Of a DNA stretch of 64,000 nucleotides, positions 1 through 13,617 are shown in pieces. The stretch lies in the NCBI GenBank assembly GCA_015060765.1, contig SUXW01000005.1, positions 1-64,000 on the forward strand, in the 5' to 3' direction. The notes beneath the pieces were generated by a model, which was given only the letters and a program-made list of their open reading frames with translations, was not told the DNA's origin and ran no database searches. The stretch's first letter is position 1. Each line of letters opens with the position of its first letter. The position numbers and the translations under genes are program-made. This stretch comes from Bacteroides sp. Lineage in GTDB: Bacteria; Bacteroidota; Bacteroidia; Bacteroidales; Bacteroidaceae.

Positions 1-386
1 ACCGCTTCCGTACAAAACCCGGTGCGGCCGTCTACAGGGGATACAGTGACCGGTGCATCGTGGCGGTGATTGAAGGGTGCACCTACAGCCAGCTGCAGGC
101 CAATACGGCACTGAAGCAACAACTGGCCCTGCTGGAGACATTCGACACCGGTACGGAATCGGGGCGGAACGCCTTGAAGGCATGCAATGCGGCCATCCGT
201 TCTGCCTTGCCTGCCGGAATGACGGCCGTGACCTACACCTGGGACCCCGACCGTGGCATCACGTCGGAAACGGACGCTTCAGGGGACACCACCTATTTTG
301 AATACGACAGTTTCGGACGCCTGGCCGCCGTACGCAATGCCGACTGGCAGGTGGAAGAGAACCACGAATACCATTTCAAGCAGTAA
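1..386 (+). CDS. C-terminal end of a YD-repeat (RHS-family) protein, 5' partial
   Basis: The reading frame is open from the left edge (codons start at base 3) to a TAA at 384-386, so the gene begins outside the window. The visible 127 or so residues hold a YD-repeat near the end (YFEYDSFGRLAAVRNAD), the hallmark of RHS/YD proteins. Before it is a segment without a recognisable domain. It sits 35 bp upstream of a complete RHS protein in the same direction, as in Bacteroidota loci where a large secreted partner precedes the toxin-bearing RHS protein. The GC-rich codon use matches the 5' half of the next gene and differs from the AT-rich tips. Function beyond belonging to the RHS locus cannot be read from this fragment. 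A GTG at 60 is an internal codon, not a believable start. Confidence 0.8.
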   Translation, partial: RFRTKPGAAVYRGYSDRCIVAVIEGCTYSQLQANTALKQQLALLETFDTGTESGRNALKACNAAIRSALPAGMTAVTYTWDPDRGITSETDASGDTTYFEYDSFGRLAAVRNADWQVEENHEYHFKQ

Positions 387-421
387 TCCGATTATCATCA
401 ACCATTAAAAAAATGTATTTT

Positions 422-3400
422 ATGAAAAGAACGATCATATCCTTATTGCTCTGTGCACTTGCCTGCGCCTCCATGGCACAGGTAAGCGGCCAGAACTACA
501 TCCGCAGCAGACGGATGCTCGACGCCACAGGCGGCAGCCATGTGGACAACATCACGTATTACGACGGTCAGGGACGGGCTTTCCAGACGGTGTCCAAATC
601 CGTACAGTCGGGAACCGTAAAGGAGCGTATGGCTACCTTGCAGGAATACGACGGGAAGGGACGTGCCACCGTAGGTTGGCTTCCCACTCCGGTTTCGGAA
701 GACTATACGGTTCCGGCCACATTGAAGTCAACAGCTAAGGGAAGCACCGGTTATAACGACACCTGTCCTTTTGAAACCACTGTATACGAGAACTCCCCGT
801 TGGACCGTGTACAGCTGCAGTACGGGGCGGGTGCAGCCTGGTACAACTCCCATCCCGTAAGTTCCGAATGGATGACCAACACCGTAAGCGGTGACCTGTC
901 GTGCAAGAAATATACTACCGACGGCACCACCCTGAGCGGCGGCACTGCCACCCATGCAGCGGGGACACTGTATGTAACCAAGACTACCGATGAGGACGGG
1001 AACGTGAGCTATACCTTTGTAGATGGTGAGGAACGCACCTTGCTGGAACGACGCATGAACGGTACCGAGCAGCTCGACACCTATTATGTGTACGACGACT
1101 ACGGTCGCCTGTGCTTCGTGCTGCAGCCCATGTACCAGACCACGGCAAATGTCAGTCTGTATGCCTTCCAGTACCGGTACAACAACCGCGGGCTGTGCAT
1201 CTGGAAGAAGCTGCCCGGAGCGGAACACATCCTCTATGAATACGACGGAGCGGACCGCCTGGTATTCTCGCAGGACGGAGTGCAGCGCACATCCGGCAAG
1301 TGGACCTTCTATGTGTACGACAACCTGAACCGCCTGGTACAGCAGGGTGAGAACACTTCAAAATCGGTTTCCACATCGGGTGTGTACCTGCAGAACTACT
1401 ACGACAACTACAGCTACGTGGGCAGCACCCACTTCCCCAGTGCGGGCTACAATCCCGAAGGGGCAGCCGCCTACAGCAAGGGAAAGTTGACAGGTACGGT
1501 GGTGTCGGTGTTCGGCAGCAGTGAGAAGATTGCCACCATGTACCACTATGACATTCGTGGCCGCTTGACCAAGACCACCGAGAACAATCTGATGGGCGGT
1601 TACAACACTAAAGTGACCACCTACACGTTTACTGACCAACCGGCAACGGTAACGCTTACCCATACGGCCAGCGGAAAGCTGACACAGACAGAAGTGTACA
1701 CCTATACGTATGACCATAGCGACCGAATCGGCAGCATTACACACAAGTTGAATAGTAATGCAGCAGTGACTTTGGCAAGCTATACCTATGACAACAAGGG
1801 TAGATTGGCCACCAAGAAGCTGCACGGTTCTTCAAGCAACCAGTTGACGTATGCCTACAACATCCGTTCATGGCTGACAGGAATAAGCAGTAGCAAGTTT
1901 ACCCAAACCTTGGGGTATGGCAGTCATTATAACGGTAACATCACCGCCATGAACTGGACAGCCAACGGCAGCAGCCACAGCTATGCGTTCACTTACGATG
2001 GTATGAACCGTATGCTCAACGCTACCCATGGTACAGGTGCATACACCGAAAAAGTGACGGGCTATGACAAGAACGGGAACATTACCGGATTACAGCGTTA
2101 CAACTCTTCGTTGATAGATAACTTGACCTATACCTACAGTGGTAACCAGCTTACCAAGGTGGAGGACGCAACGGGCAATAATACCGGTTTTACGGACGGT
2201 TCGCATACAAACGGTGAATACACTTACGATAATAATGGAAATTTAACGAAAGATTTGAATAAGGGAATAACCAATATATCGTATAATGTGTTATCTTTGC
2301 CATCGGTAGTTACGTTCAGTAACGGCAATACCATCACTTACCTGTACACTGCTGACGGAAGAAAACTCCGCACAATACATGTAATCAGTGGTACAGCCAC
2401 TACAACCGACTACTGCGGAAACGTGATCTATGAAAATGGCACCCAGAGACTGTTGTTGACGGAAGAGGGGTACATTGACTTGGCAAACAGTAATGCGTAT
2501 TACTATTACCTGAAGGATCATCAAGGCAATAACCGAGTGGTAGTAAGTTCAAGTGGGACGGTGATGGAGACCAACCATTACTACCCGTTCGGTGGTACAT
2601 TCGCTACATCAAACGTTCAGCCTTACAAATATAATGGTAAGGAACTGGATACCAAGAACGGATTGAACTGGTATGATTATGGGGCGAGACATTATGATGT
2701 GGCACTTGGTAGATGGTTTGTGGTAGACCCGTTGGCGGAGAAATATTATTCATCAAGTCCTTTTGTATATTGTGGTAATAATCCTATAAATAGAATTGAT
2801 CCAACAGGAATGGAATGGGAAGATGATGAAGAAGCTGAACGTTTAAAGAGAAAAGTAGAAAGGAAAATGCGATCTTTGAAACGGGAAAATGATAAGAAAC
2901 AATCCAAGTTGGATAAAGGGGGCTTAAGTGACAAGAAAGTGAATAAGTTGAAAGCTCAAATTGTCGAAAACCAAGAACGTATTTCACATCTCCAAACCAG
3001 TTTAAATGATATAGATGTGTTGAGTAATGATAAAAACAATGTGTATGCGTTAAGCAAAACGGATGGTGGTGAACATCATGTAAAGAAGGCAGAGGACGGA
3101 AGAGTGTTGATTGAAACATCTTCTGATGCTATTTCATTACACGAAATTAGTCATGTGAGACAATCTTTAAATAGCTATGGTAAACTTTTATTCAGTCCTA
3201 ATGGTTATTTATACAATGCTGGCCGCACTTCAGCAGAACTGTTTTCTAAAATGGAGATAGAAGCATATAGGATACAATATTCTTATGATTTGTCATTCCC
3301 TGGGAATTTATATAAAAAAGGAATACAAGGTATTGATGCCAAATCAGTAGGTAATATATATAATCCTAATACAGGTAAATACGTATATGAAATAATTCAT

Positions 3401-3424
3401 AAATATTCGTTAAAATTGAAATGA
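422..3424 (+). CDS. Secreted RHS/YD-repeat polymorphic toxin with HEXXH tip
   Basis: This 1000-residue protein is the only complete RHS gene here. I chose ATG 422 over 413 because it opens directly into a signal peptide (MKRTIISLLLCALACASMAQ). Next comes a DUF6443-type N-terminal segment (NYIRSRRMLDATGG), then many YD repeats. The RHS-associated core follows at about residues 715-800 (NGKELDTKNGLNWYDYGARH, VDPLAEKYY, NPINRIDPTG). After the core the tip is unrelated to the other cassettes: a charged coiled-coil stretch, then HEISH with His907, Glu908 and His911, the zincin zinc-binding pattern. RHS proteins encapsulate and deliver C-terminal toxins, so I infer a metallopeptidase-like effector. 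The 5' half is GC-rich and the tip AT-rich, a mosaic pattern. A candidate immunity gene starts 3 bp after the stop. The substrate is unknown. Confidence 0.85.
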   Translation: MKRTIISLLLCALACASMAQVSGQNYIRSRRMLDATGGSHVDNITYYDGQGRAFQTVSKSVQSGTVKERMATLQEYDGKGRATVGWLPTPVSEDYTVPATLKSTAKGSTGYNDTCPFETTVYENSPLDRVQLQYGAGAAWYNSHPVSSEWMTNTVSGDLSCKKYTTDGTTLSGGTATHAAGTLYVTKTTDEDGNVSYTFVDGEERTLLERRMNGTEQLDTYYVYDDYGRLCFVLQPMYQTTANVSLYAFQYRYNNRGLCIWKKLPGAEHILYEYDGADRLVFSQDGVQRTSGKWTFYVYDNLNRLVQQGENTSKSVSTSGVYLQNYYDNYSYVGSTHFPSAGYNPEGAAAYSKGKLTGTVVSVFGSSEKIATMYHYDIRGRLTKTTENNLMGGYNTKVTTYTFTDQPATVTLTHTASGKLTQTEVYTYTYDHSDRIGSITHKLNSNAAVTLASYTYDNKGRLATKKLHGSSSNQLTYAYNIRSWLTGISSSKFTQTLGYGSHYNGNITAMNWTANGSSHSYAFTYDGMNRMLNATHGTGAYTEKVTGYDKNGNITGLQRYNSSLIDNLTYTYSGNQLTKVEDATGNNTGFTDGSHTNGEYTYDNNGNLTKDLNKGITNISYNVLSLPSVVTFSNGNTITYLYTADGRKLRTIHVISGTATTTDYCGNVIYENGTQRLLLTEEGYIDLANSNAYYYYLKDHQGNNRVVVSSSGTVMETNHYYPFGGTFATSNVQPYKYNGKELDTKNGLNWYDYGARHYDVALGRWFVVDPLAEKYYSSSPFVYCGNNPINRIDPTGMEWEDDEEAERLKRKVERKMRSLKRENDKKQSKLDKGGLSDKKVNKLKAQIVENQERISHLQTSLNDIDVLSNDKNNVYALSKTDGGEHHVKKAEDGRVLIETSSDAISLHEISHVRQSLNSYGKLLFSPNGYLYNAGRTSAELFSKMEIEAYRIQYSYDLSFPGNLYKKGIQGIDAKSVGNIYNPNTGKYVYEIIHKYSLKLK

Positions 3425-3427
3425 AAT

Positions 3428-4105
3428 ATGAAAAAAATTTTGTGTCTAATTGCAATATTATTGACAAATAATTCTGTTATTCATGCCCAAAAGAAAATAG
3501 TTTCAGGTGTGTATATAGAAGATGGAGGATACGAACTTCATATTAAGGATATGGAAGTTTATCTCATATTAAATCAGGGTTATTCTTTAGCTTTTGAAAG
3601 TGATACCTTGGCAATATGTACATTAAAAAATGTGGAGAATGGATTTATAGAACTTAATTCATTAACTTCTGAAGAGCTAATACAGCCTACAATGGAAATT
3701 CGTCAAAAATATGATGAGTTTGTACGGAAGAAACGAGTTGTTTTTAAAATTCCTTGCCAATGTGATTTACTAATTGAAGTCAATACAGATAAAAATGAAC
3801 CCTATTTTTTAGACTATCCTAATCAAGGTTCTATTATTGAATTGCCAGAACAAACTAACAATTTTATTTACTCGGTAGAATTAGAAAGGATACAAATGCC
3901 TCATGATTCTGGAGGATTGTTTTATGGTATTGTTAGGTATGTTTCGGATGAAATTGAGTTTGAAGAGGGTAAAAATATAGTTATTGTCTCTTTACCTGCT
4001 ATGAATTGTTCTTTCTTTGAAAGATATAATCTCAGAGGAGATTATGCAAGAATAATAGGTGATACAATTATTTGGAAAGGACGTACATTCATAAAAGATG
4101 AGTAA
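3428..4105 (+). CDS. Exported candidate immunity protein for the HEXXH tip
   Basis: A 225-residue protein with a clear N-terminal signal peptide (MKKILCLIAILLTNNSVIHAQ) and a soluble remainder. It matches no family I can name. Assignment as immunity protein rests on position: it starts 3 bp after the toxin stop, is AT-rich like the tip, and the four following cassettes repeat the same tip-then-small-gene order. Export would place it in the periplasm, implying that the tip acts there or must be neutralised there. It is followed by the array boundary motif and a terminator. Confidence 0.65.
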   Translation: MKKILCLIAILLTNNSVIHAQKKIVSGVYIEDGGYELHIKDMEVYLILNQGYSLAFESDTLAICTLKNVENGFIELNSLTSEELIQPTMEIRQKYDEFVRKKRVVFKIPCQCDLLIEVNTDKNEPYFLDYPNQGSIIELPEQTNNFIYSVELERIQMPHDSGGLFYGIVRYVSDEIEFEEGKNIVIVSLPAMNCSFFERYNLRGDYARIIGDTIIWKGRTFIKDE

Positions 4106-4165
4106 CTATAATCTTTTAGAACAATTGAAATCCCTGCCATGCATCAAGTATTGGTAGGGAGGTAG

Positions 4166-4197
4166 ATTCAACTTTTAAATGCAATTAATCCTTATAA
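4166..4197 (+). repeat. Array boundary motif, copy 1
   Basis: First of five copies of a conserved stretch that begins ATTCAACTTTTAAATGCAAT and ends ATCCTTATA. It lies after each immunity gene and directly before a hairpin terminator. The other copies are at 5941, 9137, 10981 and 12353. The conservation spans non-coding sequence while the adjacent genes are unrelated, so the motif marks the 3' edge of each tip-immunity module and may be a downstream homology arm for recombination. Confidence 0.85.
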
Positions 4198-4200
4198 GGA

Positions 4201-4241
4201 GAGGCTGTGTTAAAATGTAAATTTTGGCGCAGCCTCTTTTT
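4201..4241 (+). terminator. Hairpin terminator after cassette 1
   Basis: GAGGCTGTG at 4201 pairs with CGCAGCCTC at 4228-4236 (one G-T/C-type mismatch at most), followed by a run of five T. It closes the rhs-immunity transcript before the next core fragment. Confidence 0.75.
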
Positions 4242-4248
4242 CTCAAAT

Positions 4249-4458
4249 CAACTACGACAATAATGGAAATTTAACAAAAGATTTGAATAAGGGAATAACC
4301 AATATATCGTATAATGTGTTATCTTTCGATAAGATAGGCTTCGCTTCAGAAATGCTCAAATAAATTTGGCATTCCGTTCAGCTTGCACTATCTTTGCCAC
4401 AAGTCGTTACGTTCAGTAATGGCAATATTACCTGAAAGACCATCAAGGCAATAACCGT
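4249..4458 (+). pseudogene. Truncated RHS core fragment heading cassette 2
   Basis: The sequence matches the 3' core of the complete gene (YDNNGNLTKDLNKGITNISYNV region) but is broken twice. At 4327-4395 it contains a 69-bp insertion. After GGCAAT it jumps directly to TATTACCTG, losing the roughly 170 bp that encode the segment between these points in the complete gene. Stops occur in the tip's reading frame just upstream, so this fragment cannot be translated into the tip. It is best read as homology for recombination. Confidence 0.75.
4327..4395 (+). promoter_or_regulatory. 69-bp inserted mini-repeat carrying a Bacteroides promoter
   Basis: Insertion inside the RHS core, bounded by the ATCTTT sequence on both sides (4321-4326 and 4390-4395). 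It carries -33 TTTG at 4365-4368, a 20-bp spacer, and -7 TATCTTTG at 4389-4396, matching the Bacteroides sigma-ABfr consensus (TTTG / TAnnTTTG). Its ends hold short inverted repeats (AAGATAG near the left, CTATCTT at the right). The same insertion is at 11140-11208 with one base different. It would transcribe the tip and the immunity gene. Confidence 0.7.
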
Positions 4459-5343
4459 GTGGTACTAAGTTCAAGTGGGACGGTGATGGAGACCAACCAT
4501 TACTACCCGTTTGGTGGTGTGTTCTCTACAAGTAATGTGCAACCATACAAGTACAACGGTAAGGAACTGGATACCAAGAACGGCCTGAACTGGTATGATT
4601 ATGGTACACGCCATTATGATGCAGCACTTGGTAGATGGCATGTGGTGGACCCGTTGGCAGAGAAGATGTATGGTTGGAGTCCGTATGGATATTGTCGAAA
4701 TAACCCGGTAATTAGAAAAGATGTAAGTGGGAAATGGGATGTAACAGTGCACACTTTTAGTGAAAGATCTGTATATGGATTTGCTTATTTAGACGTGACT
4801 GATAAATCAGGAAATATTGTATATCGTACGATGGTTCGTGTTGAAGGATCCAATAGTGCAGAAAATGGATTTAATAAACGTGATAGGACTAAAACCTACG
4901 CAGATACTCCGACAGGCACATATAAAATCAGAGGTTGGTCTAATCGTTTGTCTAAACTAAATAGAGCGGCATATGGCCCTAATGATATATTGGAATTAGA
5001 TTATATTGAAGGTGAAGCGGCTGGAAAACGGAGTGGAATTCATCTTCATGGTGGTCGCCAAGAAGATAAGGGTGGAAAAGAGAAAGGAGCTAAATTGCAA
5101 GTAACCCAAGGTTGTATGAGAATTTATGACGAAGATATCGCTGAAATGAAATTGATAACGGATTTGTTAGAGCAGAGTGATCCAAACGAAAAGGGGAATT
5201 ATTTGTATGTTACAAATGATTTACAACAAATGGAAGACGGTTCTTATCATTATCAACAAAAAAATGATAAAATTTTTAATCTATGGAAAACTTTAGCTGA
5301 ATTATTAATGCAAAATCCAAACATTGTTATAAGTTTTGAATAA
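4459..5343 (+). CDS. Silent RHS tip cassette 2: core end plus L,D-transpeptidase-like tip
   Basis: The 294-residue frame begins inside the RHS core at GTG 4459; ATG 4486 is the next candidate. No signal peptide is present. The core end (PFGGVFSTSNVQPYKYNGKE, VDPLAEK, NPVIRKDVSGK) is followed by a unique tip of about 210 residues. The tip shows PTGTYKIRG, GIHLHGG (His195, His197) and VTQGCMRIYD (Cys219). This order and the 22-residue His-Cys spacing resemble the YkuD L,D-transpeptidase active site, which crosslinks or attaches to peptidoglycan; DUF5675-like proteins are an alternative. Without the N-terminal core it cannot be exported as it stands, so it is probably a stored tip used after recombination. 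A candidate immunity gene follows at once. Confidence 0.65.
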   Translation: MVLSSSGTVMETNHYYPFGGVFSTSNVQPYKYNGKELDTKNGLNWYDYGTRHYDAALGRWHVVDPLAEKMYGWSPYGYCRNNPVIRKDVSGKWDVTVHTFSERSVYGFAYLDVTDKSGNIVYRTMVRVEGSNSAENGFNKRDRTKTYADTPTGTYKIRGWSNRLSKLNRAAYGPNDILELDYIEGEAAGKRSGIHLHGGRQEDKGGKEKGAKLQVTQGCMRIYDEDIAEMKLITDLLEQSDPNEKGNYLYVTNDLQQMEDGSYHYQQKNDKIFNLWKTLAELLMQNPNIVISFE

Positions 5344-5344
5344 T

Positions 5345-5920
5345 ATGAAAATTTTTAAAATAATACTTTTAATGTTTCTGTCATTGTACTGCAAAAGTAT
5401 GCAATGCAATGCGTCAAGGATTGAGTGCGATACGTTGGATTGCGTGTTCGATACTTTATCAGTGGATGCTTCGTTGCTCTTTATTGAAGAAAACAGAACA
5501 AAACTAGACATGAATTTGGTTACTTATTGGGGGCGATACGACTTAATAGACAATATAGATACTATAGCCACTGTACTCGGCGAGTGTGATTTCTCGCCTA
5601 ATGTGAACAGAAAACTTTTGCCTCTCTACATATACGTAATGAAGAAACTGTCCGGAAACGTCCATAATGACGGATACATCGGCGAGATGTTTGCCGACAA
5701 GGCGTATTCTTTGTTCAAGAACCATCCTGGATGCTTGTTGCAATATTTGCATTTTGTAGATGCAACCAACAGACTACAGCTGGCAGGTGGTGTATGTATG
5801 GGCATGGTGTTTGCTGAAGTTAAAGAAGTGGAAGATTTATTGGCAAAATATAAGAAAGAATTCCCTCAATATATGTCTGAAGTTTTATATATACAAGATA
5901 TTAGGAAAAGGATAAAATGA
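5345..5920 (+). CDS. Exported candidate immunity protein, cassette 2
   Basis: A 191-residue protein starting at ATG 5345, one base after the tip's stop (an in-frame TTG at 5336 overlaps the tip but is less likely). It has a hydrophobic signal segment (MKIFKIILLMFLSLYCKSM) and several cysteines near the mature N-terminus. The rest is predicted mainly helical by eye and matches no family known to me. Tight coupling to the L,D-transpeptidase-like tip and the shared module order argue for immunity. It is followed by boundary copy 2. Confidence 0.6.
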   Translation: MKIFKIILLMFLSLYCKSMQCNASRIECDTLDCVFDTLSVDASLLFIEENRTKLDMNLVTYWGRYDLIDNIDTIATVLGECDFSPNVNRKLLPLYIYVMKKLSGNVHNDGYIGEMFADKAYSLFKNHPGCLLQYLHFVDATNRLQLAGGVCMGMVFAEVKEVEDLLAKYKKEFPQYMSEVLYIQDIRKRIK

Positions 5921-5940
5921 AGCTCGAATTCCTCAAGTAA

Positions 5941-5972
5941 ATTCAACTTTTAAATACATCGAATCCTTATAG
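5941..5972 (+). repeat. Array boundary motif, copy 2
   Basis: Same motif as at 4166 with a few changes (TAAATACATCGAATCCTTAT). It separates immunity gene 2 from its terminator. Confidence 0.8.
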
Positions 5973-5976
5973 GGAG

Positions 5977-6009
5977 ACTCCTTGGCAAATGAATGTCAAG
6001 GAGTTTTTT
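5977..6009 (+). terminator. Hairpin terminator after cassette 2
   Basis: ACTCCTTG at 5977 pairs with CAAGGAGT ending at 6004, followed by six T. The stem differs in sequence from the terminators of cassettes 1 and 3 but is shared with cassettes 4 and 5. Confidence 0.8.
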
Positions 6010-6064
6010 CGGATGATTTCGAATATTTTTCGCCATTGTACCATAGCAGCTCGACACCTATTAT

Positions 6065-8431
6065 GTGTACGACGACTACGGTCGCCTGTGCTTCGTGCTG
6101 CAGCCCATGTACCAGACCACGGCAAATGTCAGTCTGTATGCCTTCCAGTACCGGTACAACAACCGCGGGCTGTGCATCTGGAAGAAGCTGCCCGGAGCGG
6201 AACACATCCTCTATGAATACGACGGAGCGGACCGCCTGGTATTCTCGCAGGACGGAGTGCAGCGCACATCCGGCAAGTGGACCTTCTATGTGTACGACAA
6301 CCTGAACCGCCTGGTACAGCAGGGTGAGAACACTTCAAAATCGGTTTCCACATCGGATGTGTACCTGCAGAACTACTACGACAATTATACAAGTTTTCGT
6401 GAAGCGTTACCCGTTTCGGAACGCAGCCAATATCCCGACGACACTTCCGGATACAGCAAAGGCAGCCTGACAGGAACCGTTATGAATGTGTTCGGTAGCG
6501 GTGAGAAGATTTATACCGCTTATTACTACGATGCAAAGGGGCGTGTAAGAAAGACTATCGAGAATAATTTGTTGGGAGGTTACAACACCACTGAAACGAC
6601 TTATACGTTTACCGACCAACCGGCTACCGTAACGCTTACCCATACCGCCAACGGAAAGCTGACACAGACCGAAATGTACACCTATACGTATGACCATAGC
6701 GACCGCATCAGCAGCGTTACGCATAAGTTGAATAGTAATACAGCAGTGACCCTTGCCAGCTATACGTATGACAACAAGGGTAGATTGGCCACCAAGAAGC
6801 TGCACGGTTCTTCAAGCAACCAGTTGACGTATGCCTACAACATCCGTTCATGGCTGACAGGAATAAGCAGTAGCAAGTTTACCCAGAACCTGACCTATAA
6901 CAATGGCAGCACCGGTTTCAATGGTAACATCACCGCAATGAACTGGACTGCCAACGGCAGCAGCCACAGCTACAGCTTCACCTACGATGGAGCAAACCGC
7001 ATGCTGAATGCCACTCATGGAACAGGTGCATACACCGAAAAAGTAACCGAATACGACAAGAACGGGAATATCAAGTATCTGCACCGTTACAACAACGGTT
7101 CGTTGGTGGACAACCTGACCTATACCTACAATGGTAACCGATTAACCAAAGTGGAGGACGCCACAGGCAACACGGCAGGCTTCAAGAATGGTGCAAGCCA
7201 GGCGAATGAATACACCTACGACAATAATGGAAATTTAACGAAAGATTTGAACAAGGGAATAACCAATATATCGTATAATGTGTTATCTTTGCCCCAAGTA
7301 GTTACGTTCAGTAATGGAAATACCATCACTTATCTGTATGCTGCGGATGGGAAAAAACTCCGCACGGTGCATGTAACAAACGGTACAGCCACTACAACCG
7401 ACTACTGCGGAAATGTGATCTATGAAAATGGCACCCAGAAGCTGTTGCTGACGGAAGAAGGGTACATTGACTTGGCGAACGGTAATGCATATTATTATTA
7501 CCTGAAAGACCATCAAGGTAATAACCGAGTGGTAGTAAGTTCAAGTGGTACTGTGATGGAGACCAATCATTATTACCCGTTCGGTGGAGTATTCTCCACA
7601 AGTACCAATGTACAGCCCTACAAGTACAATGGCAAGGAGCTGGATACCAAAAACGGCTTGAACTGGTATGATTATGGAGCACGGCATTATGATGCGACAT
7701 TGGGACGCTGGCATGTGGTGGATCCGTTGAGTGAGAAGTATTTAGCAGACACTCCGTATTCATATTGTGGAAGTAATCCTGTGAATAGAATAGACCCTAA
7801 TGGAGCGGCTTGGTATCGTTACAAAGATAGCAATGGTAATTGGATTTATGAATGGGGAGAAAATATAAATACACAAAATGACGTTGATGCTTTAAATAAG
7901 AATGCAGAGTTCATAGATTTTACTCATATAAATGATGATATATATTATAGTTTATTTGGGAATAAATTGTTGAAAGATACCAAAGAAGCGAAAGCCACAC
8001 AAAAACTTGATGAGGCTATTCTTAACTATGCAAAATATAGTGTTGATGTTTTATCGGATTACGAAGCTGTACAGAAAGTTACAGATTTTGACATTGGAGA
8101 ATATACTAGAACTTCAAGTTTAGGGTTAACCGAGGGTGTTTATTTTACATTTAACTATGGTACAGCCAATGCTTATGGTACAGCATATTACTATTTATTG
8201 TCAAAAGGGAAACCCAATAAAGGAACCTTTGAAAGTTGGACTGTTTCTCAAGAGAATATGCATAACTCTAATATGGGATATGGTAATATGAAGAGTGGTT
8301 ATCATTTGCGTTTTGTCCGCAAAGGTGGTTCTGATAGAAATTGGAATGCACGTGTTGTCTTTAACAAGAAAAAGGATGTTGAATTGTTGTATAATATATT
8401 TAAGAATATTCGGAAAAATGTTACTAAATAG
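6065..8431 (+). CDS. Silent RHS tip cassette 3: long core copy plus unknown tip
   Basis: Homology to the complete gene begins sharply at 6045 within a codon, and an in-frame TAG lies at 6044-6046, so no start or signal peptide can serve this frame. The nominal start is GTG 6065. Bases 6045-6384 equal 1068-1407 with one mismatch (6357). The core then diverges around 6385-6600 and becomes nearly identical again, including a run of over 100 bases around 6770-6885. The RHS core signature ends at about residue 580 (NPVNRIDPNG). The unique tip of about 210 residues is AT-rich and resembles no family I recognise; it has no obvious catalytic motif. It is probably a stored allele of the active gene's 3' half. 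Confidence 0.7.
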   Translation: MYDDYGRLCFVLQPMYQTTANVSLYAFQYRYNNRGLCIWKKLPGAEHILYEYDGADRLVFSQDGVQRTSGKWTFYVYDNLNRLVQQGENTSKSVSTSDVYLQNYYDNYTSFREALPVSERSQYPDDTSGYSKGSLTGTVMNVFGSGEKIYTAYYYDAKGRVRKTIENNLLGGYNTTETTYTFTDQPATVTLTHTANGKLTQTEMYTYTYDHSDRISSVTHKLNSNTAVTLASYTYDNKGRLATKKLHGSSSNQLTYAYNIRSWLTGISSSKFTQNLTYNNGSTGFNGNITAMNWTANGSSHSYSFTYDGANRMLNATHGTGAYTEKVTEYDKNGNIKYLHRYNNGSLVDNLTYTYNGNRLTKVEDATGNTAGFKNGASQANEYTYDNNGNLTKDLNKGITNISYNVLSLPQVVTFSNGNTITYLYAADGKKLRTVHVTNGTATTTDYCGNVIYENGTQKLLLTEEGYIDLANGNAYYYYLKDHQGNNRVVVSSSGTVMETNHYYPFGGVFSTSTNVQPYKYNGKELDTKNGLNWYDYGARHYDATLGRWHVVDPLSEKYLADTPYSYCGSNPVNRIDPNGAAWYRYKDSNGNWIYEWGENINTQNDVDALNKNAEFIDFTHINDDIYYSLFGNKLLKDTKEAKATQKLDEAILNYAKYSVDVLSDYEAVQKVTDFDIGEYTRTSSLGLTEGVYFTFNYGTANAYGTAYYYLLSKGKPNKGTFESWTVSQENMHNSNMGYGNMKSGYHLRFVRKGGSDRNWNARVVFNKKKDVELLYNIFKNIRKNVTK

Positions 8432-9122
8432 ATTAAGGATCATTGTTTGTATTATATTATCTCTCTTGTTTCAAAGCTGTTTTGGGTATATAACTAATAA
8501 CAAATCTACTTATCCCTTTTTAGCAGATATTGTAGATTTATATTGTGCTTATTATTTACAAGGACCTAATAATTTGACAGATTTGGAAAAAGTAGCCAAT
8601 GATATGGTACAAGCTTTTCCCGATGAGGTTTATTATTATAAAATTTTAAATGAGTATACATTCCCAAAGTTAAAAAAGATATCTAAAGAATTACAATTCA
8701 TACAAACAAATTGTAGCTTCTCTATAAGACATGGAAATAAAATATTATGCCAAATAGATGATTTTTCTTTGTGCTGTTTTGATGAATATATATTAGAAGA
8801 AGAAAAATACGTATTAAGAATACAAAAGCTTATGAATTCCATTTATTTCTTCGATGAAAAAGGTGAAGCTTTGTTAACAAATAAAGATTTAAGACATGAA
8901 ATGTGGAATAAATTAAAGCAAGTATATCAAAATTACAATTTGTCTAAGGATGAGATTATAGCTGTTAATTATCTAAACAATAAAGGAATAAATCCTTTTT
9001 GTGAAAGAATTGAGATTAATAAAACGAAATCTGTTTTGGAAATAGAAGAAATATGTTCAAAGATATGCAGTAAGCATGCTATAGATAGAATAATATTTTA
9101 TATCCCTTTATCTATCAGATAG
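8418..9122 (+). CDS. Candidate immunity lipoprotein, cassette 3
   Basis: I place the start at ATG 8418, overlapping the tip by 14 bp. The frame is open further upstream, but only 8418 yields an N-terminal export signal (MLLNRLRIIVCIILSLLFQSC). The cysteine at its end suggests a lipoprotein, though the lipobox is weak. The 234-residue product is very AT-rich and lysine-rich. No family is recognised. Overlap with the tip implies translational coupling, as expected for a toxin-immunity pair. Confidence 0.6.
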   Translation: MLLNRLRIIVCIILSLLFQSCFGYITNNKSTYPFLADIVDLYCAYYLQGPNNLTDLEKVANDMVQAFPDEVYYYKILNEYTFPKLKKISKELQFIQTNCSFSIRHGNKILCQIDDFSLCCFDEYILEEEKYVLRIQKLMNSIYFFDEKGEALLTNKDLRHEMWNKLKQVYQNYNLSKDEIIAVNYLNNKGINPFCERIEINKTKSVLEIEEICSKICSKHAIDRIIFYIPLSIR

Positions 9123-9136
9123 ATTCAATTTGGTCA

Positions 9137-9169
9137 ATTCAACTTTTAAATGCAATTGAAACCTTATAA
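9137..9169 (+). repeat. Array boundary motif, copy 3
   Basis: ATTCAACTTTTAAATGCAAT followed by ACCTTATA, as in copy 1. Confidence 0.85.
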
Positions 9170-9170
9170 A

Positions 9171-9213
9171 AGAGGCTGTGTTAAATATAAATTTTACGCA
9201 GTCTCTTTTTTCA
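9171..9213 (+). terminator. Hairpin terminator after cassette 3
   Basis: AGAGGCTGTG at 9171 faces CGCAGTCTCT ending at 9207 across an AT-rich loop, followed by a T run. This is the same terminator family as at 4201, with one stem position changed. Confidence 0.7.
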
Positions 9214-9250
9214 GACCATCTACAACTATAATGGAAATTTAACACAGGAT

Positions 9251-10435
9251 TTGAACAAGGGAACAACCAATATATCGTACAATTTATTATCTTTGCCACA
9301 GGTAGTTACGTTCAGTAATGGCAACACCATCACTTACCTGTATGCTGCGGATGGAAGAAAACTCCGCACAGTGCATGTAACAAACGGTACAGCCACTACA
9401 ACCGACTACTGCGGAAACGTGATCTATGAAAACAGCGCCCAAAAGCTGTTGCTGACGAAGGAAGGATACATCAACCTGAGCAGCCCCACCACCTACTATT
9501 ATTACCTGAAAGACCATCAAGGCAATAACCGAGTGGTGCTAAGTTCAAGTGGTGCAGTGCAGGAAGTGAACCATTACTACCCGTTCGGTAGTACCTTTGC
9601 ATCATCCAACGTTCAGCCCTACAAATATAATGGTAAGGAACTGGATACCAAGAACGGCTTGAACTGGTATGATTATGGTGCACGGCATTATGACGCGGCT
9701 CTTGGTAGATGGTTTGTGGTGGACCCGTTGGCAGAGAAGTATTATTCCACATCGTTGTATGGATATTGTGATAATAATCCTATACGATACATAGATCCGA
9801 CAGGTAAGGCATGGAAACCCACATATACAGTAGATGATAAAGGTAATAAAATTTATAACGGTTATGAATGGATTCCAGAATCTGAATCATATAACAAAGA
9901 TGGAAGTTTGAAAAATGGATTATATTCGCAAGCTATTTTCTTTTCTGATAACGGAACATTTGATAGCTCAAAACGTTATAATATGGGGTCTTCTACGGCA
10001 TATGTATATTTGGCTGATGGTTCTATAAATACTTTTGAAGCAAATACGCATCCTTCTAGTGAAGATTATGCTATAATTCCAGAAGGTGTTTATCATGCAA
10101 AAGTGGGAATACATAATGGAAGTCAAGCAAGTTATACTGCATTACGAATGAGTGATGTCAATAATAGTAATCGAATCGAATTGGGTAAAGTTAATCCTGC
10201 ATTTGAAGATGGACGAACATATGCTATAGGTATTAACATTCATAAACCAGGGTTGAATAATCTTACAGGTATGACTAATTCAGGAATACCGATTTCAGAA
10301 GGTTGTCTATTAATTGACCGTAATAAATGGAATGAATTTATTGGAATATTTGATACTACAAAACAACGCCCAAATCAAATAAGCGTTATTGTATCCCGTA
10401 GCTTAAAAAGACCGTTAAATTATAAGAAAAAATGA
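9251..10435 (+). CDS. Silent RHS tip cassette 4: core end plus second L,D-transpeptidase-like tip
   Basis: The frame is open from about 9191, directly behind the terminator, and core homology starts near 9220 (YNYNGNLTQDLNKG). No ATG precedes the core; TTG 9251 is only nominal. The core ends at about residue 180 (NPIRYIDPTG). The tip shows AIIPEGVYHAK, GINIHKPG (His331) and ISEGCLLID (Cys352), again the His-x20-Gly-Cys pattern of YkuD-like L,D-transpeptidases, and it is unrelated in detail to cassette 2. It lacks a signal peptide and is therefore probably silent until recombined into the complete gene. The immunity candidate overlaps its stop by 4 bp (ATGA). Confidence 0.65.
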   Translation: MNKGTTNISYNLLSLPQVVTFSNGNTITYLYAADGRKLRTVHVTNGTATTTDYCGNVIYENSAQKLLLTKEGYINLSSPTTYYYYLKDHQGNNRVVLSSSGAVQEVNHYYPFGSTFASSNVQPYKYNGKELDTKNGLNWYDYGARHYDAALGRWFVVDPLAEKYYSTSLYGYCDNNPIRYIDPTGKAWKPTYTVDDKGNKIYNGYEWIPESESYNKDGSLKNGLYSQAIFFSDNGTFDSSKRYNMGSSTAYVYLADGSINTFEANTHPSSEDYAIIPEGVYHAKVGIHNGSQASYTALRMSDVNNSNRIELGKVNPAFEDGRTYAIGINIHKPGLNNLTGMTNSGIPISEGCLLIDRNKWNEFIGIFDTTKQRPNQISVIVSRSLKRPLNYKKK

Positions 10436-10959
10436 GGAATATATTAGTTGTATTAATTCTATGTTTATCATGCCAAACTATTAAAGTTATGTCTCAGAAT
10501 ACACCAATGGTTGAGTTTAATCAACTAAATGAAAATGGGGTACGTAAAGGACTTTGGATTGATATCAAAGGACAACGAACGGAGTTCAAATATTATAAAA
10601 ATGGGATTCTCGATGGCCCTTGCTGGATAATGTCTTCAAATGATAATCATGTATTAGCTATCGGAAGATTTGAAAATAGTAAATATGCTGGTGTATGGTA
10701 TAACTTTGATGACGAGGGATATTTATTGTCTGTTCAAAAGAATTTCAAAGAAACTATCATTCAAATTCCATCAAAACACAAGGCCATTGGTTTTTGCTCA
10801 AATCTTTGTTATTGCATATATTATTATTCAAATGGTTTTATAAAATCTGAAGGATTGTTATTGTGGAATGTATCTCCTGACTCTGATTTTACATTTGAAT
10901 ATGGTGAATGGAAGTATTATAATGATGACGGCACTTTAATGTACACCAAGAATTACTAG
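10432..10959 (+). CDS. Candidate immunity lipoprotein with MORN/YwqK-like repeats, cassette 4
   Basis: This 175-residue protein overlaps the tip by ATGA. The N-terminus is a lipoprotein-type signal (MRNILVVLILCLSC). The body has repeated G-x-W/Y segments such as NGVRKGLWIDI, KNGILDGPCW, NSKYAGVWYNF and EYGEWKYYNDDG. This is the MORN-like pattern of the YwqK family often annotated as antitoxin. The combination of overlap and fold makes it the most convincing immunity gene of the array. Confidence 0.7.
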   Translation: MRNILVVLILCLSCQTIKVMSQNTPMVEFNQLNENGVRKGLWIDIKGQRTEFKYYKNGILDGPCWIMSSNDNHVLAIGRFENSKYAGVWYNFDDEGYLLSVQKNFKETIIQIPSKHKAIGFCSNLCYCIYYYSNGFIKSEGLLLWNVSPDSDFTFEYGEWKYYNDDGTLMYTKNY

Positions 10960-10980
10960 GGTGTGTAATAATAAAAGGTA

Positions 10981-11012
10981 GATTTAACTTTTAAATGCAA
11001 TCATCCTTATAG
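10981..11012 (+). repeat. Array boundary motif, copy 4
   Basis: GATTTAACTTTTAAATGCAATC then ATCCTTATAG. It is slightly shorter than copies 1-3, like copy 5. Confidence 0.8.
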
Positions 11013-11013
11013 A

Positions 11014-11054
11014 AGAGACTCCTTGGTATTCATTTGCCAAGGAGTCTCTGTTTT
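11014..11054 (+). terminator. Hairpin terminator after cassette 4
   Basis: AGAGACTCCTTGG at 11014-11026 pairs perfectly with CCAAGGAGTCTCT at 11037-11049, followed by GTTTT. This is the strongest hairpin of the array. Confidence 0.85.
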
Positions 11055-11059
11055 GGATG

Positions 11060-11294
11060 AATACCTACGATAATAATGGAAATTTAACACAGGATTTGAA
11101 TAAGGGTATAACCAATATATCGTATAATGTGTTATCTTTCGATAAGATAGGCTTCGCTTCAGAAATGCTCAAATAAATTTGGCATTCCGTTCAGCTTGCG
11201 CTATCTTTGCCACAAGTAGTTACGTTCAGTAATGGCAATATTACCAGAAAGACCATCAAGGTAACAACCGAGTAGTGTTAAGTTCAGTGGTACT
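11060..11294 (+). pseudogene. Truncated RHS core fragment heading cassette 5
   Basis: It has the same build as 4249-4458: the YDNNGNLTQDLNKGITNISY segment, the 69-bp promoter insertion (11140-11208), and the same GGCAATATTACC deletion junction. A further single-base loss near 11284 (AAGTTCAGTGG instead of AAGTTCAAGTGG) shifts the frame before the tip. The shared scars show that cassettes 2 and 5 descend from one copy. Confidence 0.75.
11140..11208 (+). promoter_or_regulatory. Second copy of the 69-bp promoter-bearing insertion
   Basis: Identical in place and length to 4327-4395, with one base changed (GCGCTATC for GCACTATC). -33 TTTG is at 11178-11181, then a 20-bp spacer, and TATCTTTG is at 11202-11209. 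Confidence 0.7.
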
Positions 11295-12143
11295 GTGATG
11301 GAGACCAACCATTACTATCCGTTTGGGGGTGTGTTCTCTACAAGTTCCAATCTCCAACCATACAAGTACAACGGTAAGGAACTGGATACAAAGAACGGCT
11401 TGAACTGGTATGATTATGGCGCACGCCATTATGATGCGGCTTTGGGTAGATGGCATGTGGTGGACCCGTTGGCGGAGAAGTATTATTCTACATCGCTGTA
11501 TGCATATTGCGACAATAATCCCATAAAGTATGTGGATCCGACAGGAGAAATGAAAGTCATTTATAATCCGGATGGAACTTATAAAGAAACAACTCACAAT
11601 AATTGGTTTCATAATACATTTATGGGACGTCAGGAATATATAGACTACGGTAACAGAATGACCCGACTGTCGGAAGAAGATTTTTGGCAATGGCAGACAA
11701 CAGGACAATGGGGAAGTTTTAAGCCTGCAGATGGCTTGACAAGTTTTGAATTTTGGTTAGATAGTGCTTCGGATAATGTTATAGATGGTGCTGTGAAATT
11801 CTTTATTTCGGAAGCGTATTCTACACCTAATTCTATTGCAGCTATGTTTACAGGAAGAACATTAGGAGGTAGTCTTTTAACGCCAATGGAGAAACAGGAG
11901 AAATTTGTAGATTTAGTGAATGCTTTACCTGTAACTAAATTTTTGAAGGTCGTACATCCAGGTACAGCCAAAAACTTTTACAAAGCACATTCTACAGGTT
12001 TTTTTACTAAGCAAAAGTATCAAAATAAAGTGAATAGATATAAAAGTATTATTAAAAGGGGAAATGCATATAATAAAATCATTGATTATTTTGTAAGTCC
12101 CCTAAATGAGATTAATGATAATAAGGATGAGTTGGATTATTAA
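11295..12143 (+). CDS. Silent RHS tip cassette 5, unknown tip
   Basis: The frame starts at GTG 11295 or ATG 11298 inside the core, just after the frameshift described for the preceding fragment. The core signature (NGKELDTKNGLNWYDYGARH, VDPLAEKYYSTS, NPIKYVDPTG) takes about 90 residues. The tip of about 190 residues has a central hydrophobic stretch and a basic C-terminal part (KQKYQNKVNRYKSIIKRG). I recognise no family and see no catalytic motif. The product has no export signal. It overlaps the next small gene by 38 bp. Confidence 0.6.
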   Translation: MMETNHYYPFGGVFSTSSNLQPYKYNGKELDTKNGLNWYDYGARHYDAALGRWHVVDPLAEKYYSTSLYAYCDNNPIKYVDPTGEMKVIYNPDGTYKETTHNNWFHNTFMGRQEYIDYGNRMTRLSEEDFWQWQTTGQWGSFKPADGLTSFEFWLDSASDNVIDGAVKFFISEAYSTPNSIAAMFTGRTLGGSLLTPMEKQEKFVDLVNALPVTKFLKVVHPGTAKNFYKAHSTGFFTKQKYQNKVNRYKSIIKRGNAYNKIIDYFVSPLNEINDNKDELDY

Positions 12144-12300
12144 TTTAATAGGGGGAACAATCAGATGGATAATAAAAGGATGTAGGACTAAACTTTCAGA
12201 AGAAGTTTCCTTTTCGAAAAAATATTATTATAATTGGTTGTGTGTTATTTATTTATCTGTCATATTGACATTATTGAGTCTATTAGGGATAATACATTAA
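12106..12300 (+). CDS. Small membrane protein, candidate immunity for cassette 5
   Basis: 64 residues from ATG 12106 (12115 and 12127 are alternatives), overlapping the tip. There is a hydrophobic N-terminal part, a basic middle, and a clear C-terminal membrane segment (WLCVIYLSVILTLLSLLGII). It occupies the position where the other cassettes have their immunity gene, but it is much smaller, so it may be a membrane-anchored immunity protein or a remnant. Confidence 0.45.
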   Translation: MRLMIIRMSWIINLIGGTIRWIIKGCRTKLSEEVSFSKKYYYNWLCVIYLSVILTLLSLLGIIH

Positions 12301-12352
12301 ACATTATTATAAGGTTATCTGTTGGCGGAATTAATTTAGTGTGTACTAATGG

Positions 12353-12382
12353 ATTCAACTTTCAAATGCAATCATCCTTATA
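12353..12382 (+). repeat. Array boundary motif, copy 5
   Basis: ATTCAACTTTCAAATGCAATC then ATCCTTATAG. It marks the end of the RHS array. Confidence 0.8.
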
Positions 12383-12387
12383 GAAAA

Positions 12388-12420
12388 AACTCCTTGGAAA
12401 GAATGCCAAGGAGTTTCTGT
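12388..12420 (+). terminator. Hairpin at the end of the RHS array
   Basis: AACTCCTTGG pairs with CCAAGGAGTT (about 12388-12415) around a short loop. It lies between the array and the convergent ychF gene and may serve both strands. The remaining sequence to 12513 shows nothing further. Confidence 0.7.
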
Positions 12421-12513
12421 ATATTTAAAGAGGACTCACTCTTTTTGCAACAAACCTCTTCAACAAAAAAGTAAAGTTTTTACAAGTATTTCAAATTTCT
12501 CTGATAATTCTTC

Positions 12514-13617
12514 TTATACGTTAAAACGGAAGTGCATGATATCACCATCTTGTACTACGTATTCCTTGCCTTCTACACCCATCTTTCCGGCTTCCTTTAC
12601 AGCTGCTTCAGAACCATACTTGATATAGTCGTCGTACTTGATGACTTCGGCACGGATAAAGCCTTTTTCGAAATCGGTATGGATTACACCGGCACATTGA
12701 GGAGCCTTCCAACCTTTGCGGTAGGTCCAGGCCTTTACTTCCATTTCGCCGGCAGTAATGAAGGTTTCCAGATTCAGCAACTTATAGATAGCCTTTATCA
12801 AGCGGTCGCAACCCGATTCCTTCAAGCCCATGTCTTCCAAGAACATCTGCTTTTCTTCGTAGCTTTCGAGTTCGGCTATATCGGCTTCAGTCTGGGCGCT
12901 GATGATGAGCAGTTCGGCTTCTTCGTCCTTGATGGCTTCGCGAACGGCCTCTACATAAGGATTACCATTGGCAGCCGAAGTATCGTCTACATTGCATACA
13001 TAAAGTACGGGCTTGGTGGTAAGAAGGAACAGGTTCTTGGCTACATTTTGTTCGTCTTCGGTTTCGAAAGTAACGGTACGGGCCGATTTACCTTGCAACA
13101 AAGCATCCCGATAAGCTGCCAATACATCGTATTCCAGTTTGGCTTGCTTGTCACCCCCTACGCGGGCTTGCTTCTCTACACGCTTGATGCGATTTTCTAC
13201 GGTTTCCAAATCTTTCAATTGCAATTCCGCATCAATGATTTCCTTGTCGCGTACGGGATTCACCGAACCGTCTACATGCACTATGTTGTCGTTATCGAAA
13301 CAACGGAGTACATGGATAATGGCATCGGTTTCACGGATATTTCCCAAGAACTGGTTACCCAATCCTTCGCCCTGACTGGCACCTTTTACCAATCCTGCAA
13401 TATCCACAATATCACAAGTAGCGGGAACAATGCGTCCCGGTTTTACCAATTCCGCTAATTTGTTCAACCTGTCATCGGGAACAGAAATCTGTCCTTGCTG
13501 GGCGTCGATGGTACAGAATGGATAGTTTGCACTCTGTGCCTTTGCACTCGACAAACAATTGAAAAGAGTGGATTTTCCTACGTTAGGAAGGCCTACAATA
13601 CCTGCTTTTAATGCCAT
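12514..13617 (-). CDS. ychF: YchF/EngD family P-loop ATPase
   Basis: 367 residues, the usual family length. An Obg-related P-loop sits near the N-terminus (GLPNVGKST, residues 8-16). A switch motif DIAGLVKGAS follows, and the G4 position reads NVDD instead of NKxD, the change that makes YchF prefer ATP over GTP. A coiled-coil insert and a C-terminal TGS domain (RKGWKAPQCAGVIHTDFEKG) complete the fold. YchF binds ribosomes and is linked to translation and oxidative-stress control. It is monocistronic, convergent with the RHS array, with its own TATCTTTG promoter element upstream. Confidence 0.97.
   Translation of the reverse strand: MALKAGIVGLPNVGKSTLFNCLSSAKAQSANYPFCTIDAQQGQISVPDDRLNKLAELVKPGRIVPATCDIVDIAGLVKGASQGEGLGNQFLGNIRETDAIIHVLRCFDNDNIVHVDGSVNPVRDKEIIDAELQLKDLETVENRIKRVEKQARVGGDKQAKLEYDVLAAYRDALLQGKSARTVTFETEDEQNVAKNLFLLTTKPVLYVCNVDDTSAANGNPYVEAVREAIKDEEAELLIISAQTEADIAELESYEEKQMFLEDMGLKESGCDRLIKAIYKLLNLETFITAGEMEVKAWTYRKGWKAPQCAGVIHTDFEKGFIRAEVIKYDDYIKYGSEAAVKEAGKMGVEGKEYVVQDGDIMHFRFNV

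What the first reader, a model, noticed from the sequence alone, without database searches (positions are those of the whole stretch)
1..12430. Array of four silent RHS tip-immunity cassettes behind one complete Bacteroidota RHS gene
The window shows one complete signal-peptide-bearing RHS protein and then four same-strand modules. Each module is a core fragment lacking a start, a unique tip, a small exported protein gene, a boundary motif and a terminator. The core homology before each tip would allow recombination to exchange the active tip. RHS and CdiA orphan cassettes are known in Proteobacteria; a Bacteroidota DUF6443-type array with this repeated architecture is much less described.
Basis: partly seen in the sequence, partly recalled or inferred. 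Interest (0 to 1): 0.9.

Follow-up and report, generated by a model that had tools for sequence, protein, structure and literature searches.

The report
Bacteroides RHS toxin-tip cassette array
A gut bacterium carries one complete predicted toxin gene followed by four spare toxin tips with their likely antidotes, and comparison with relatives shows that such tips move on and off complete genes, a known kind of system here seen in a little-described toxin family.

Summary
A complete DUF6443-RHS gene with its tip and downstream gene is followed, on one strand, by four core-fragment/tip/downstream-gene cassettes, each closed by a repeated motif plus hairpin. A second locus in the genome has the same plan. 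In 82 loci all 176 core matches lie on one strand; 60 of 71 core fragments reach the core end, and 60 lie downstream of the nearest complete gene against 6 upstream. Homologues of tips M2 and M3 sit on complete genes in other species; the active tip with its neighbour is an orphan cassette in two other genomes. M2 shares 310 exact bases with the active gene, then diverges. Three cassettes with unrelated tips share one frameshifting core deletion, so silent cassettes probably recombine with each other. Best reading: an orphan tip/immunity array made by C-terminal displacement, known from Enterobacteriaceae and in print for Ornithobacterium hominis. New here: the DUF6443 two-gene scaffold, the repeated 3' boundary, cassette-to-cassette exchange. 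'Silent' is unproven: M1 and M4 carry a promoter-like insert. M1 and M4 tips were not found on complete RHS genes. Toxicity, immunity, delivery and within-strain switching are untested.

The parts
1..386 (+). C-terminal end of the upstream partner gene, a large RHS-like protein cut by the contig start
   Evidence: ORF 3-386 matches the C-terminal part of 39 of 56 upstream ORFs of at least 300 codons in relatives; a same-strand ORF of 700 or more codons stands upstream in 44 of 58 full genes with at least 4 kb upstream, one of them (L057) in truth an RHS orphan cassette
413..2815 (+). Main RHS gene: signal peptide, DUF6443, core (start probably ATG at 422)
2816..3424 (+). Active tip T0: predicted zincin-like metallopeptidase (invariant HExxH and a later MEIEAY)
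   Evidence: alignment of the window tip with 2 homologues; the name zincin is from general knowledge
3428..4105 (+). Putative immunity gene I0 with signal peptide
   Evidence: homologues lie beside T0 homologues in L149 and L150
4165..4241 (+). Boundary motif plus terminator-like hairpin closing the active cassette
   Evidence: z -5.2
4252..4737 (+). M1 core remnant: split by a 72-bp insert (4327-4398) with a promoter-like TTTG-N20-TATCTTTG, and by a deletion of about 175 bp
4738..5343 (+). M1 tip T1: YkuD (L,D-transpeptidase fold)
   Evidence: Pfam PF03734 E 1.2e-5, above gathering score; invariant H.HGGR and GC.R in the window tip and 3 homologues
5345..5920 (+). M1 putative immunity gene I1, hydrophobic N-terminus
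5940..6010 (+). Boundary motif plus hairpin after M1
   Evidence: z -3.5
6045..7804 (+). M2 core fragment, core residues 220-799, open frame; first 310 bp identical to the main gene
7805..8431 (+). M2 tip T2, function unknown; homologue on a complete gene in L049 and on a gene joined from two core matches in L089
   Evidence: model pLDDT 67 without a PDB match at E <= 0.001
8418..9122 (+). M2 putative immunity gene I2, probable lipoprotein
   Evidence: similar gene beside the L049 tip, 22% identity, E 4e-6
9136..9210 (+). Boundary motif plus hairpin after M2
   Evidence: z -4.9
9221..9805 (+). M3 core fragment, core residues 605-799
9806..10435 (+). M3 tip T3: YkuD-like by conserved H and GC residues; homologue on a complete gene in L076
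   Evidence: no Pfam hit, model unusable
10432..10959 (+). M3 putative immunity gene I3, probable lipoprotein, overlaps the tip stop
   Evidence: homologue beside the L076 tip, 42% identity, E 4e-51
10981..11049 (+). Boundary motif plus hairpin after M3
   Evidence: z -5.3
11063..11549 (+). M4 core remnant: same insert (11140-11211) and same deletion as M1
11550..12143 (+). M4 tip T4, function unknown; orphan homologues in L151 and, in part, L231
12106..12300 (+). M4 candidate downstream gene I4, 64 aa, doubtful
12352..12420 (+). Boundary motif plus hairpin closing the array, next to ychF
   Evidence: z -3.3

Best explanation
This is a polymorphic-toxin RHS locus with an array of displaced (orphan) tip/immunity cassettes. 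A predicted exported RHS scaffold (413-2815), encoded beside a roughly 1000-aa partner protein, carries one tip (T0, probably a metallopeptidase) with its likely immunity gene. Four further tips, of which at least two have homologues that end a complete gene elsewhere, lie downstream on core fragments without the export signal. Tips are exchanged by homologous recombination inside the core on the left, with breakpoints after each cassette's terminator on the right. Cassettes recombine with the main gene and with each other. SHOWN: anatomy; the same plan in a second locus and in many relatives; tip families found loaded in one species and unloaded in another; mosaic core identity; three unrelated tips on one damaged core. 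INFERRED: toxin and immunity activity, export and delivery, the circular or duplicated intermediate, the role of the boundary as right-hand homology, and live switching in a population.
For: 82 loci: 176 forward and 0 reverse core HSPs; 71 fragments, 60 reaching the core end, 60 downstream against 6 upstream of the nearest complete gene, 5 in loci without one; 28 of 53 complete genes with at least 3.5 kb downstream have at least one fragment; 20 of 55 orphan tips match a tip on a complete gene in another locus at E <= 1e-5. T3 with I3 matches a complete gene in L076 (64% and 42% identity), T2 matches L049 (33%) and L089. T0 with I0 is an orphan cassette in L149 and L150. Exact identity of 310 bp main/M2 and 1030 bp main/second-locus main, then abrupt drops. 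M1, M4 and the C18 orphan share one deletion junction. Two other arrays clearly, and a third weakly, repeat their own 3' boundary. 80 of 124 downstream genes have a hydrophobic N-terminus against 131 of 462 control ORFs. Precedents: PMC2935791, PMC3150448, PMC3967940 (passages).
Against: M1 and M4 tips were not found on any complete RHS gene. Most tip homologies between loaded and unloaded positions are between species at 23-64% identity, so they show shared ancestry, not recent switching. 35 of 55 orphan tips have no loaded homologue in the set. The window is a draft assembly (84% complete, 42 contigs) and both RHS loci lie at contig starts. Of nine arrays tested for a shared 3' boundary, L052 (0 of 6 pairs), L094 (0 of 1) and L090 (2 of 10) show little or none, and L088 and L105 are ambiguous. 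The M4 immunity gene is doubtful. No toxin or immunity activity was tested.
Confidence: 0.86

Rival explanations
1. The orphan cassettes are debris: displaced tips on their way to loss, with no present use.
For: The C18 orphan tip appears split over two frames (two overlapping ORFs); M1, M4 and the C18 orphan have deleted, frameshifted cores; core crumbs lie alone on C17 and C20 and at G035:C33; a T1 homologue in G334 has three stops.
Against: All four window tips are open over about 200 codons; catalytic-looking residues are invariant between T1 and T3 and their homologues; M2 core has dN/dS 0.16-0.19 against the main genes with no stop, though this may reflect time spent on a complete gene.
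Confidence: 0.3
2. The array is mainly a bank of expressed immunity genes, with tips as passengers; M1 and M4 are transcribed from the inserted promoter-like sequence.
For: M1 and M4 carry an insert, the only two copies found in the genome, with TTTG-N20-TATCTTTG, which fits the Bacteroides promoter consensus as I recall it; 2 of only 3 matches in 64 kb lie there. Each downstream gene has its own ATG. Orphan CdiI is made in E. coli EC93 (PMC3150448, passages).
Against: Three matches in 64 kb is within chance (18 of 100 shuffles reach 3). M2 and M3 have no such insert. Hairpins separate the cassettes. No transcript data.
Confidence: 0.25
3. A dedicated site-specific recombinase (shufflon or integron type) moves cassettes at the boundary motif.
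For: The motif closes every cassette; all 6 motif hits (at most 1 mismatch) in this genome lie in the two RHS arrays, control 0; copies also sit at RHS-free sites in G035 and G029.
Against: No inverted cassette; no recombinase recognised by eye among the ORFs of at least 150 aa, nor by Pfam among six C5 genes; the RHS-free copies follow gene ends, one with the same kind of hairpin, as a 3' UTR or terminator element would; other arrays have different boundary words.
Confidence: 0.05
4. The array is an assembly artefact of mixed strains in a metagenome.
For: Draft genome, 42 contigs, contamination 4.3%; both RHS contigs begin in the same repeat.
Against: The same architecture is in named strains with long contigs, for example B. 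ndongoniae (L056, L057, contig 2.33 Mb) and Dysgonomonas sp. ZJ279 (L062, contig 387 kb); the cassettes differ in sequence and lie on a single assembled contig.
Confidence: 0.03

Closest known systems
rhs C-terminal tip displacement arrays of Enterobacteriaceae (Jackson 2009, PMC2935791; Poole 2011, PMC3150448; Koskiniemi 2014, PMC3967940; passages of each read)
   Same: Complete gene followed by same-strand tip fragments with variable core lengths and downstream immunity genes; tips shared between loaded and unloaded positions.
   Different: Different scaffold (DUF6443, signal peptide, separate partner gene). Core remnants in one array are diverged and mosaic, whereas Jackson reports always identical cores within a locus in E. 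coli. A repeated 3' boundary with hairpin closes each cassette here; the passages read do not mention one. Live recombination, shown in Salmonella, is not shown here.
Displaced RHS tips in Ornithobacterium hominis and Bergeyella cardium (PMC6421346, PMC13183296; passages read)
   Same: Bacteroidota; RHS gene with an array of displaced tips and immunity genes; a tip shared between genera with different RHS cores.
   Different: The O. hominis main RHS gene is over 9 kb with SpvB/TcdB signatures; here a 3-kb DUF6443 gene plus a separate partner gene.
Orphan cdiA-CT/cdiI modules of CDI systems (PMC3150448; passages read)
   Same: Toxin-tip fragments, generally without translation initiation signals, with immunity genes downstream of a complete gene; arrays of up to eleven.
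   Different: No CdiA features; the carrier is an RHS protein.
TANFOR polymorphic toxins of Bacteroidetes (PMC7073777; passages read)
   Same: Bacteroidota polymorphic toxins with variable C-terminal toxin and downstream immunity gene.
   Different: No TANFOR domain was reported here by Pfam or NCBIfam (I did not check that either library holds such a model); the word orphan does not occur in that paper's main text.

Membership tests
Orphan rhs tip/immunity arrays (C-terminal displacement) | Complete rhs gene with conserved core and variable tip | tested here: met
Orphan rhs tip/immunity arrays (C-terminal displacement) | Downstream same-strand core fragments without the gene's start and export signal, running to the core/tip junction | tested here: met
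Orphan rhs tip/immunity arrays (C-terminal displacement) | A small gene after each tip, travelling with it | tested here: met
   M1-M3 and the main cassette have one; I3, I2 and I0 homologues lie beside homologous tips elsewhere; the M4 gene is doubtful; co-travel was not seen for I1
Orphan rhs tip/immunity arrays (C-terminal displacement) | The same tips found on complete genes elsewhere | tested here: met
   homologues for M2 and M3 and for 20 of 55 orphan tips in all; M1 and M4 not found
Orphan rhs tip/immunity arrays (C-terminal displacement) | Traces of homologous recombination in the core | tested here: met
Orphan rhs tip/immunity arrays (C-terminal displacement) | Tip is toxic and is neutralised by its neighbour | not testable with these tools
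   no experiment
Orphan rhs tip/immunity arrays (C-terminal displacement) | Main/orphan fusion arises within a population | not testable with these tools
   The genome search holds one genome per species; no reads
T6SS PAAR-Rhs effectors | N-terminal PAAR or other T6SS-loading domain | tested here: not met
   Pfam finds DUF6443 and RHS repeat above cut-off, no PAAR; N-terminal hydrophobic signal-like segment instead. Whether the genome has a T6SS was not tested
CDI (CdiA) systems | CdiA haemagglutinin domains in the carrier protein | tested here: not met
   no such Pfam hit in the RHS protein or in six upstream partners of relatives; a CdiB gene was not searched for
Shufflon or invertible cassettes | Inverted cassettes and a linked recombinase | tested here: not met
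   0 reverse core matches; the only arms of 37 bp are boundary hairpins; no recombinase among six profiled C5 genes or by eye
Tc toxin TcB/TcC two-gene RHS cocoon | Two adjacent RHS genes forming one cocoon | tested here: inconclusive
   a long upstream ORF is usual and 39 of 56 resemble the window's partner; phmmer against PDB gave no hit for the RHS protein or one partner; a Teneurin YD-shell match E 0.002 below cut-off

The most novel reading that the evidence does not exclude
The array is a self-reshuffling library. Silent cassettes exchange tips with each other through damaged core remnants that can no longer be part of a complete gene, while some (M1, M4) have gained a promoter that would express orphan immunity. 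Storage, shuffling and protection then go on without loading.
Probability: 0.3. Interest if true: 0.65.

Novelty: new variant of a known kind. Interest (0 to 1): 0.46.

Why it matters
It places a tip-displacement system in a Bacteroidota RHS family (DUF6443 plus a partner gene) that I did not see described in the listings of eight literature searches or in passages of seven papers; the library lacks most subscription journals. The architecture is present in records titled Bacteroides, Dysgonomonas, Prevotella and others. Two of the tips look like peptidoglycan-active enzymes and the active one like a peptidase, with exported putative antidotes, so gut commensals may hold a large, swappable stock of envelope toxins. 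The shared damaged core makes recombination between silent cassettes directly testable.

Tried and rejected
Structure of the M3 tip: pLDDT 34, unusable. M2 tip: pLDDT 67, no PDB match at E <= 0.001. Family libraries gave no tip name above cut-off apart from YkuD for M1; PADLOC gave nothing for nine proteins. PDB sequence searches for the RHS protein and for one partner found nothing. A viral-contig scan for the promoter-like insert found nothing. Sigma-70 promoter scan: 75 found against 41.3 expected, not taken as evidence for Bacteroides. The boundary motif as an empty insertion site: rejected, because the G035 copy next to ychF points the other way from the window's copy. Assembly artefact and shufflon: rejected, see rivals. 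A first module count (69 full, 66 orphan) was replaced by the stricter, which drops 10 pieces cut by contig or locus ends and the L056 duplicates of L057; one of its fragments, L093, may be a complete gene with a diverged N-terminus. In one search the query named T5 was translated in a wrong frame; its row is not used, and repeats it in frame. A T1-like match in a 1296-aa open frame of G437 was checked as a possible complete RHS gene: it is a YkuD domain at the end of a protein with no RHS core match. In the upstream-gene count, the L057 entry is an RHS orphan cassette, not a partner.
Full report
What is there. The contig starts inside an ORF (3-386) that matches the C-terminal part of 39 of 56 ORFs of at least 300 codons lying upstream of the RHS gene in relatives. 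Next comes a complete RHS gene, 413-3424, with DUF6443, the RHS-associated core domain ending at residue 800 and a hydrophobic N-terminus. Its tip and downstream gene are followed by four same-strand cassettes M1-M4. All five cassettes end with the motif GATTCAACTTTTAAATGCAAT, or a form of it with one or two changes, and a hairpin. ychF follows at 12514-13617 on the other strand (named by eye and by its 87% match).

A second locus in the same genome (C18, L014) has the same plan: complete gene 407-3538 with another tip, a downstream membrane-protein gene, the motif and hairpin, one orphan cassette with a mosaic core and a tip that appears split over two frames, and then insertion-sequence-like debris (the debris is read by eye).

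Is it more than chance? I fetched 80 loci with related RHS genes from named records (the best 80 of 492 confirmed relatives) and added the window and C18. Of 176 core matches at E <= 1e-3, 176 are forward and 0 reverse. After merging and removing duplicates there are 153 pieces: 72 complete genes, 10 pieces cut by contig or locus ends (left out of the counts that follow) and 71 fragments. Sixty of the 71 reach the core end although they start anywhere from residue 187 to 773. Sixty lie downstream of the nearest complete gene, 6 upstream, and 5 have no complete gene in the locus; 4 of the 6 upstream ones (L057) also lie downstream of the complete gene seen in the overlapping locus L056. Of 53 complete genes with at least 3.5 kb downstream, 28 have at least one fragment and 14 at least two.

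Tips are loaded and unloaded. Of 55 orphan tips of at least 50 aa, 20 match a tip on a complete gene in another locus at E <= 1e-5, and 35 do not. For the window: T2 matches a complete gene in L049 (33%, E 2e-31) and a gene joined from two core matches in L089; T3 matches a complete gene in L076, from a Candidatus Symbiothrix MAG (64%), and its neighbour I3 matches the neighbour there (42%, E 4e-51). The window's active tip T0 and its neighbour I0 are both present as an orphan cassette downstream of a complete gene in L149 (57% and 34%) and in L150 (44% and 27%). In the family search T0 matched 4 of 250 other genomes: these two, G113 (orphan or broken pieces) and G082, where a weak match (28%) follows a core spanning residues 3-801. 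The first 152 residues of the C18 active tip match an orphan in the close relative G035 (57%), while the rest gives no match, so breakpoints may also fall inside tips. T1 was found in 3 of 250 other family genomes and 2 of 323 other order genomes: four orphans or short core pieces (one with three stops) and, in G437, a YkuD domain ending a 1296-aa protein without RHS core. T4 was found in 1 of 250 and 1 of 323, both on short core pieces. In one genome T1 and T3 homologues lie in neighbouring cassettes (L148).

Traces of recombination. The main gene and the C18 main gene share 1030 identical bases, then 80-94% in 90-column steps, then 100% again over about 270 columns, then 83-86% (64% in the last step). 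M2 starts with 310 bp identical to the main gene, then drops as low as 49% before 76-93% (68% in the last step). This is what an exchange inside the core would leave. M2 keeps an open frame over 586 codons with dN/dS of 0.16-0.19 against the two main genes, like those two against each other (0.19-0.20), so it was probably under selection until lately. M1, M4 and the C18 orphan, which have unrelated tips, share one deletion junction of about 175 bp in the core (main-gene positions about 2330-2504, read by eye), which shifts the frame; M4 and the C18 orphan also share a one-base deletion; M1 and M4 share a 72-bp insert of which no other copy was found in this genome. The simplest account is that one damaged core has been combined with three tips, that is, exchange between silent cassettes; this is an inference from the shared junction.

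Boundary. In the window the motif plus hairpin closes each cassette. Two other arrays clearly (L057, L074) and one weakly (L061, one 15-base word) repeat their own, different boundary word before core fragments; L052 and L094 show none, L090 little, and L088 and L105 are ambiguous. In 18 genomes searched the window's motif occurs in 4. Two copies in G035 and one in G029 follow genes without RHS nearby, so it may be a general 3'-end element of this lineage. The simplest reading is that each cassette keeps the 3' end of the locus it came from, which would serve as right-hand homology; that function is inferred.

What the tips may do. T0 and two homologues share an invariant HExxH and a later MEIEAY, as in zinc metallopeptidases (general knowledge). 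T1 is a YkuD domain by Pfam with conserved catalytic-type residues. T3 has a similar H and GC pattern but no Pfam hit. T2, T4 and the C18 tip are unknown. Downstream genes tend to be exported: 80 of 124 have a hydrophobic N-terminus against 131 of 462 reverse-strand control ORFs, a crude control. This fits toxins acting in the envelope.

Silent or not. The cassettes lack the export signal and are separated by hairpins. But M1 and M4 carry TTTG-N20-TATCTTTG, which fits the Bacteroides promoter consensus as I recall it; the number of such matches in the window (3) is within chance, only their position is suggestive.

Genomic site. In a search of 16 genomes with the G035 mutS-ychF junction, the two genes are neighbours in G029, G030, G033 and G035 itself (gaps of about 45 to 160 bp); in G031 about 3.2 kb lies between them, and in the rest they are far apart or on different contigs. 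In this genome mutS lies on C5, followed by an ATPase, a BT4734/VapE-type gene, an HU-like gene, two amidases and a CI-type repressor, and then, at the contig end, by the start of an exported protein whose first 62 residues resemble one upstream ORF (L048, 30%, E 7e-5). The RHS island thus probably sits between mutS and ychF; the link C5-C12 is inferred.

Comparison with print. Passages of PMC2935791, PMC3150448 and PMC3967940 describe the same architecture and, in Salmonella, its recombination. Passages of PMC6421346 and PMC13183296 describe displaced tips in Ornithobacterium hominis and a similarly structured array in Bergeyella cardium (the B. cardium paper was not read). Passages of PMC8125069 note RHS proteins of Apibacter beside T9SS-associated genes; passages of PMC7073777 describe TANFOR toxins. 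The term DUF6443 occurs in none of the papers held. So the kind is known; the scaffold, the repeated boundary and the probable cassette-to-cassette exchange are what this locus adds.

Noticed in passing
window 55851-56384; L015 2779-3281; L016 4924-5457: A dispersed repeat of about 530 bp, 97-98% identical at three places in the genome; the copies on C17 and C20 lie beside small RHS core crumbs.
   Followed up: partly
window 56385-56624, minus strand: Beside the dispersed repeat, a stretch that reads like a broken RHS/YD-repeat remnant (VAYTYDNYNRIETEVRK), with stops.
   Followed up: no
L185 6161, L186 713, L187 5690: The cassette boundary motif also follows genes without RHS nearby in G035 and G029; at L186 with the same kind of hairpin. 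It may be a lineage-specific 3'-end or terminator element.
   Followed up: partly
L159 9300-9420 and L162 9890-10440: In two relatives an amidase-like gene (by eye) and its terminator precede the motif; in L159 an amidase end is joined directly to a core fragment at ATAATGG.
   Followed up: no
L219 3596-10977: Between mutS and the start of what is probably the RHS partner gene: ATPase, BT4734/VapE-type protein, HU-like protein, two amidases and a CI-type repressor, a mobile-element-like neighbourhood.
   Followed up: partly
L056 and L057: Bacteroides ndongoniae carries two adjoining arrays with two complete genes and nine core-fragment cassettes on one contig.
   Followed up: partly
L014 6185-6420: After the C18 array, a second degenerate boundary, IS-like debris (by eye) and a further core crumb with the motif.
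   Followed up: no
L229 5279-9169, minus strand: A T1-like YkuD domain at the end of a 1296-aa open frame without RHS core in G437, so this tip family also rides on another carrier.
   Followed up: partly
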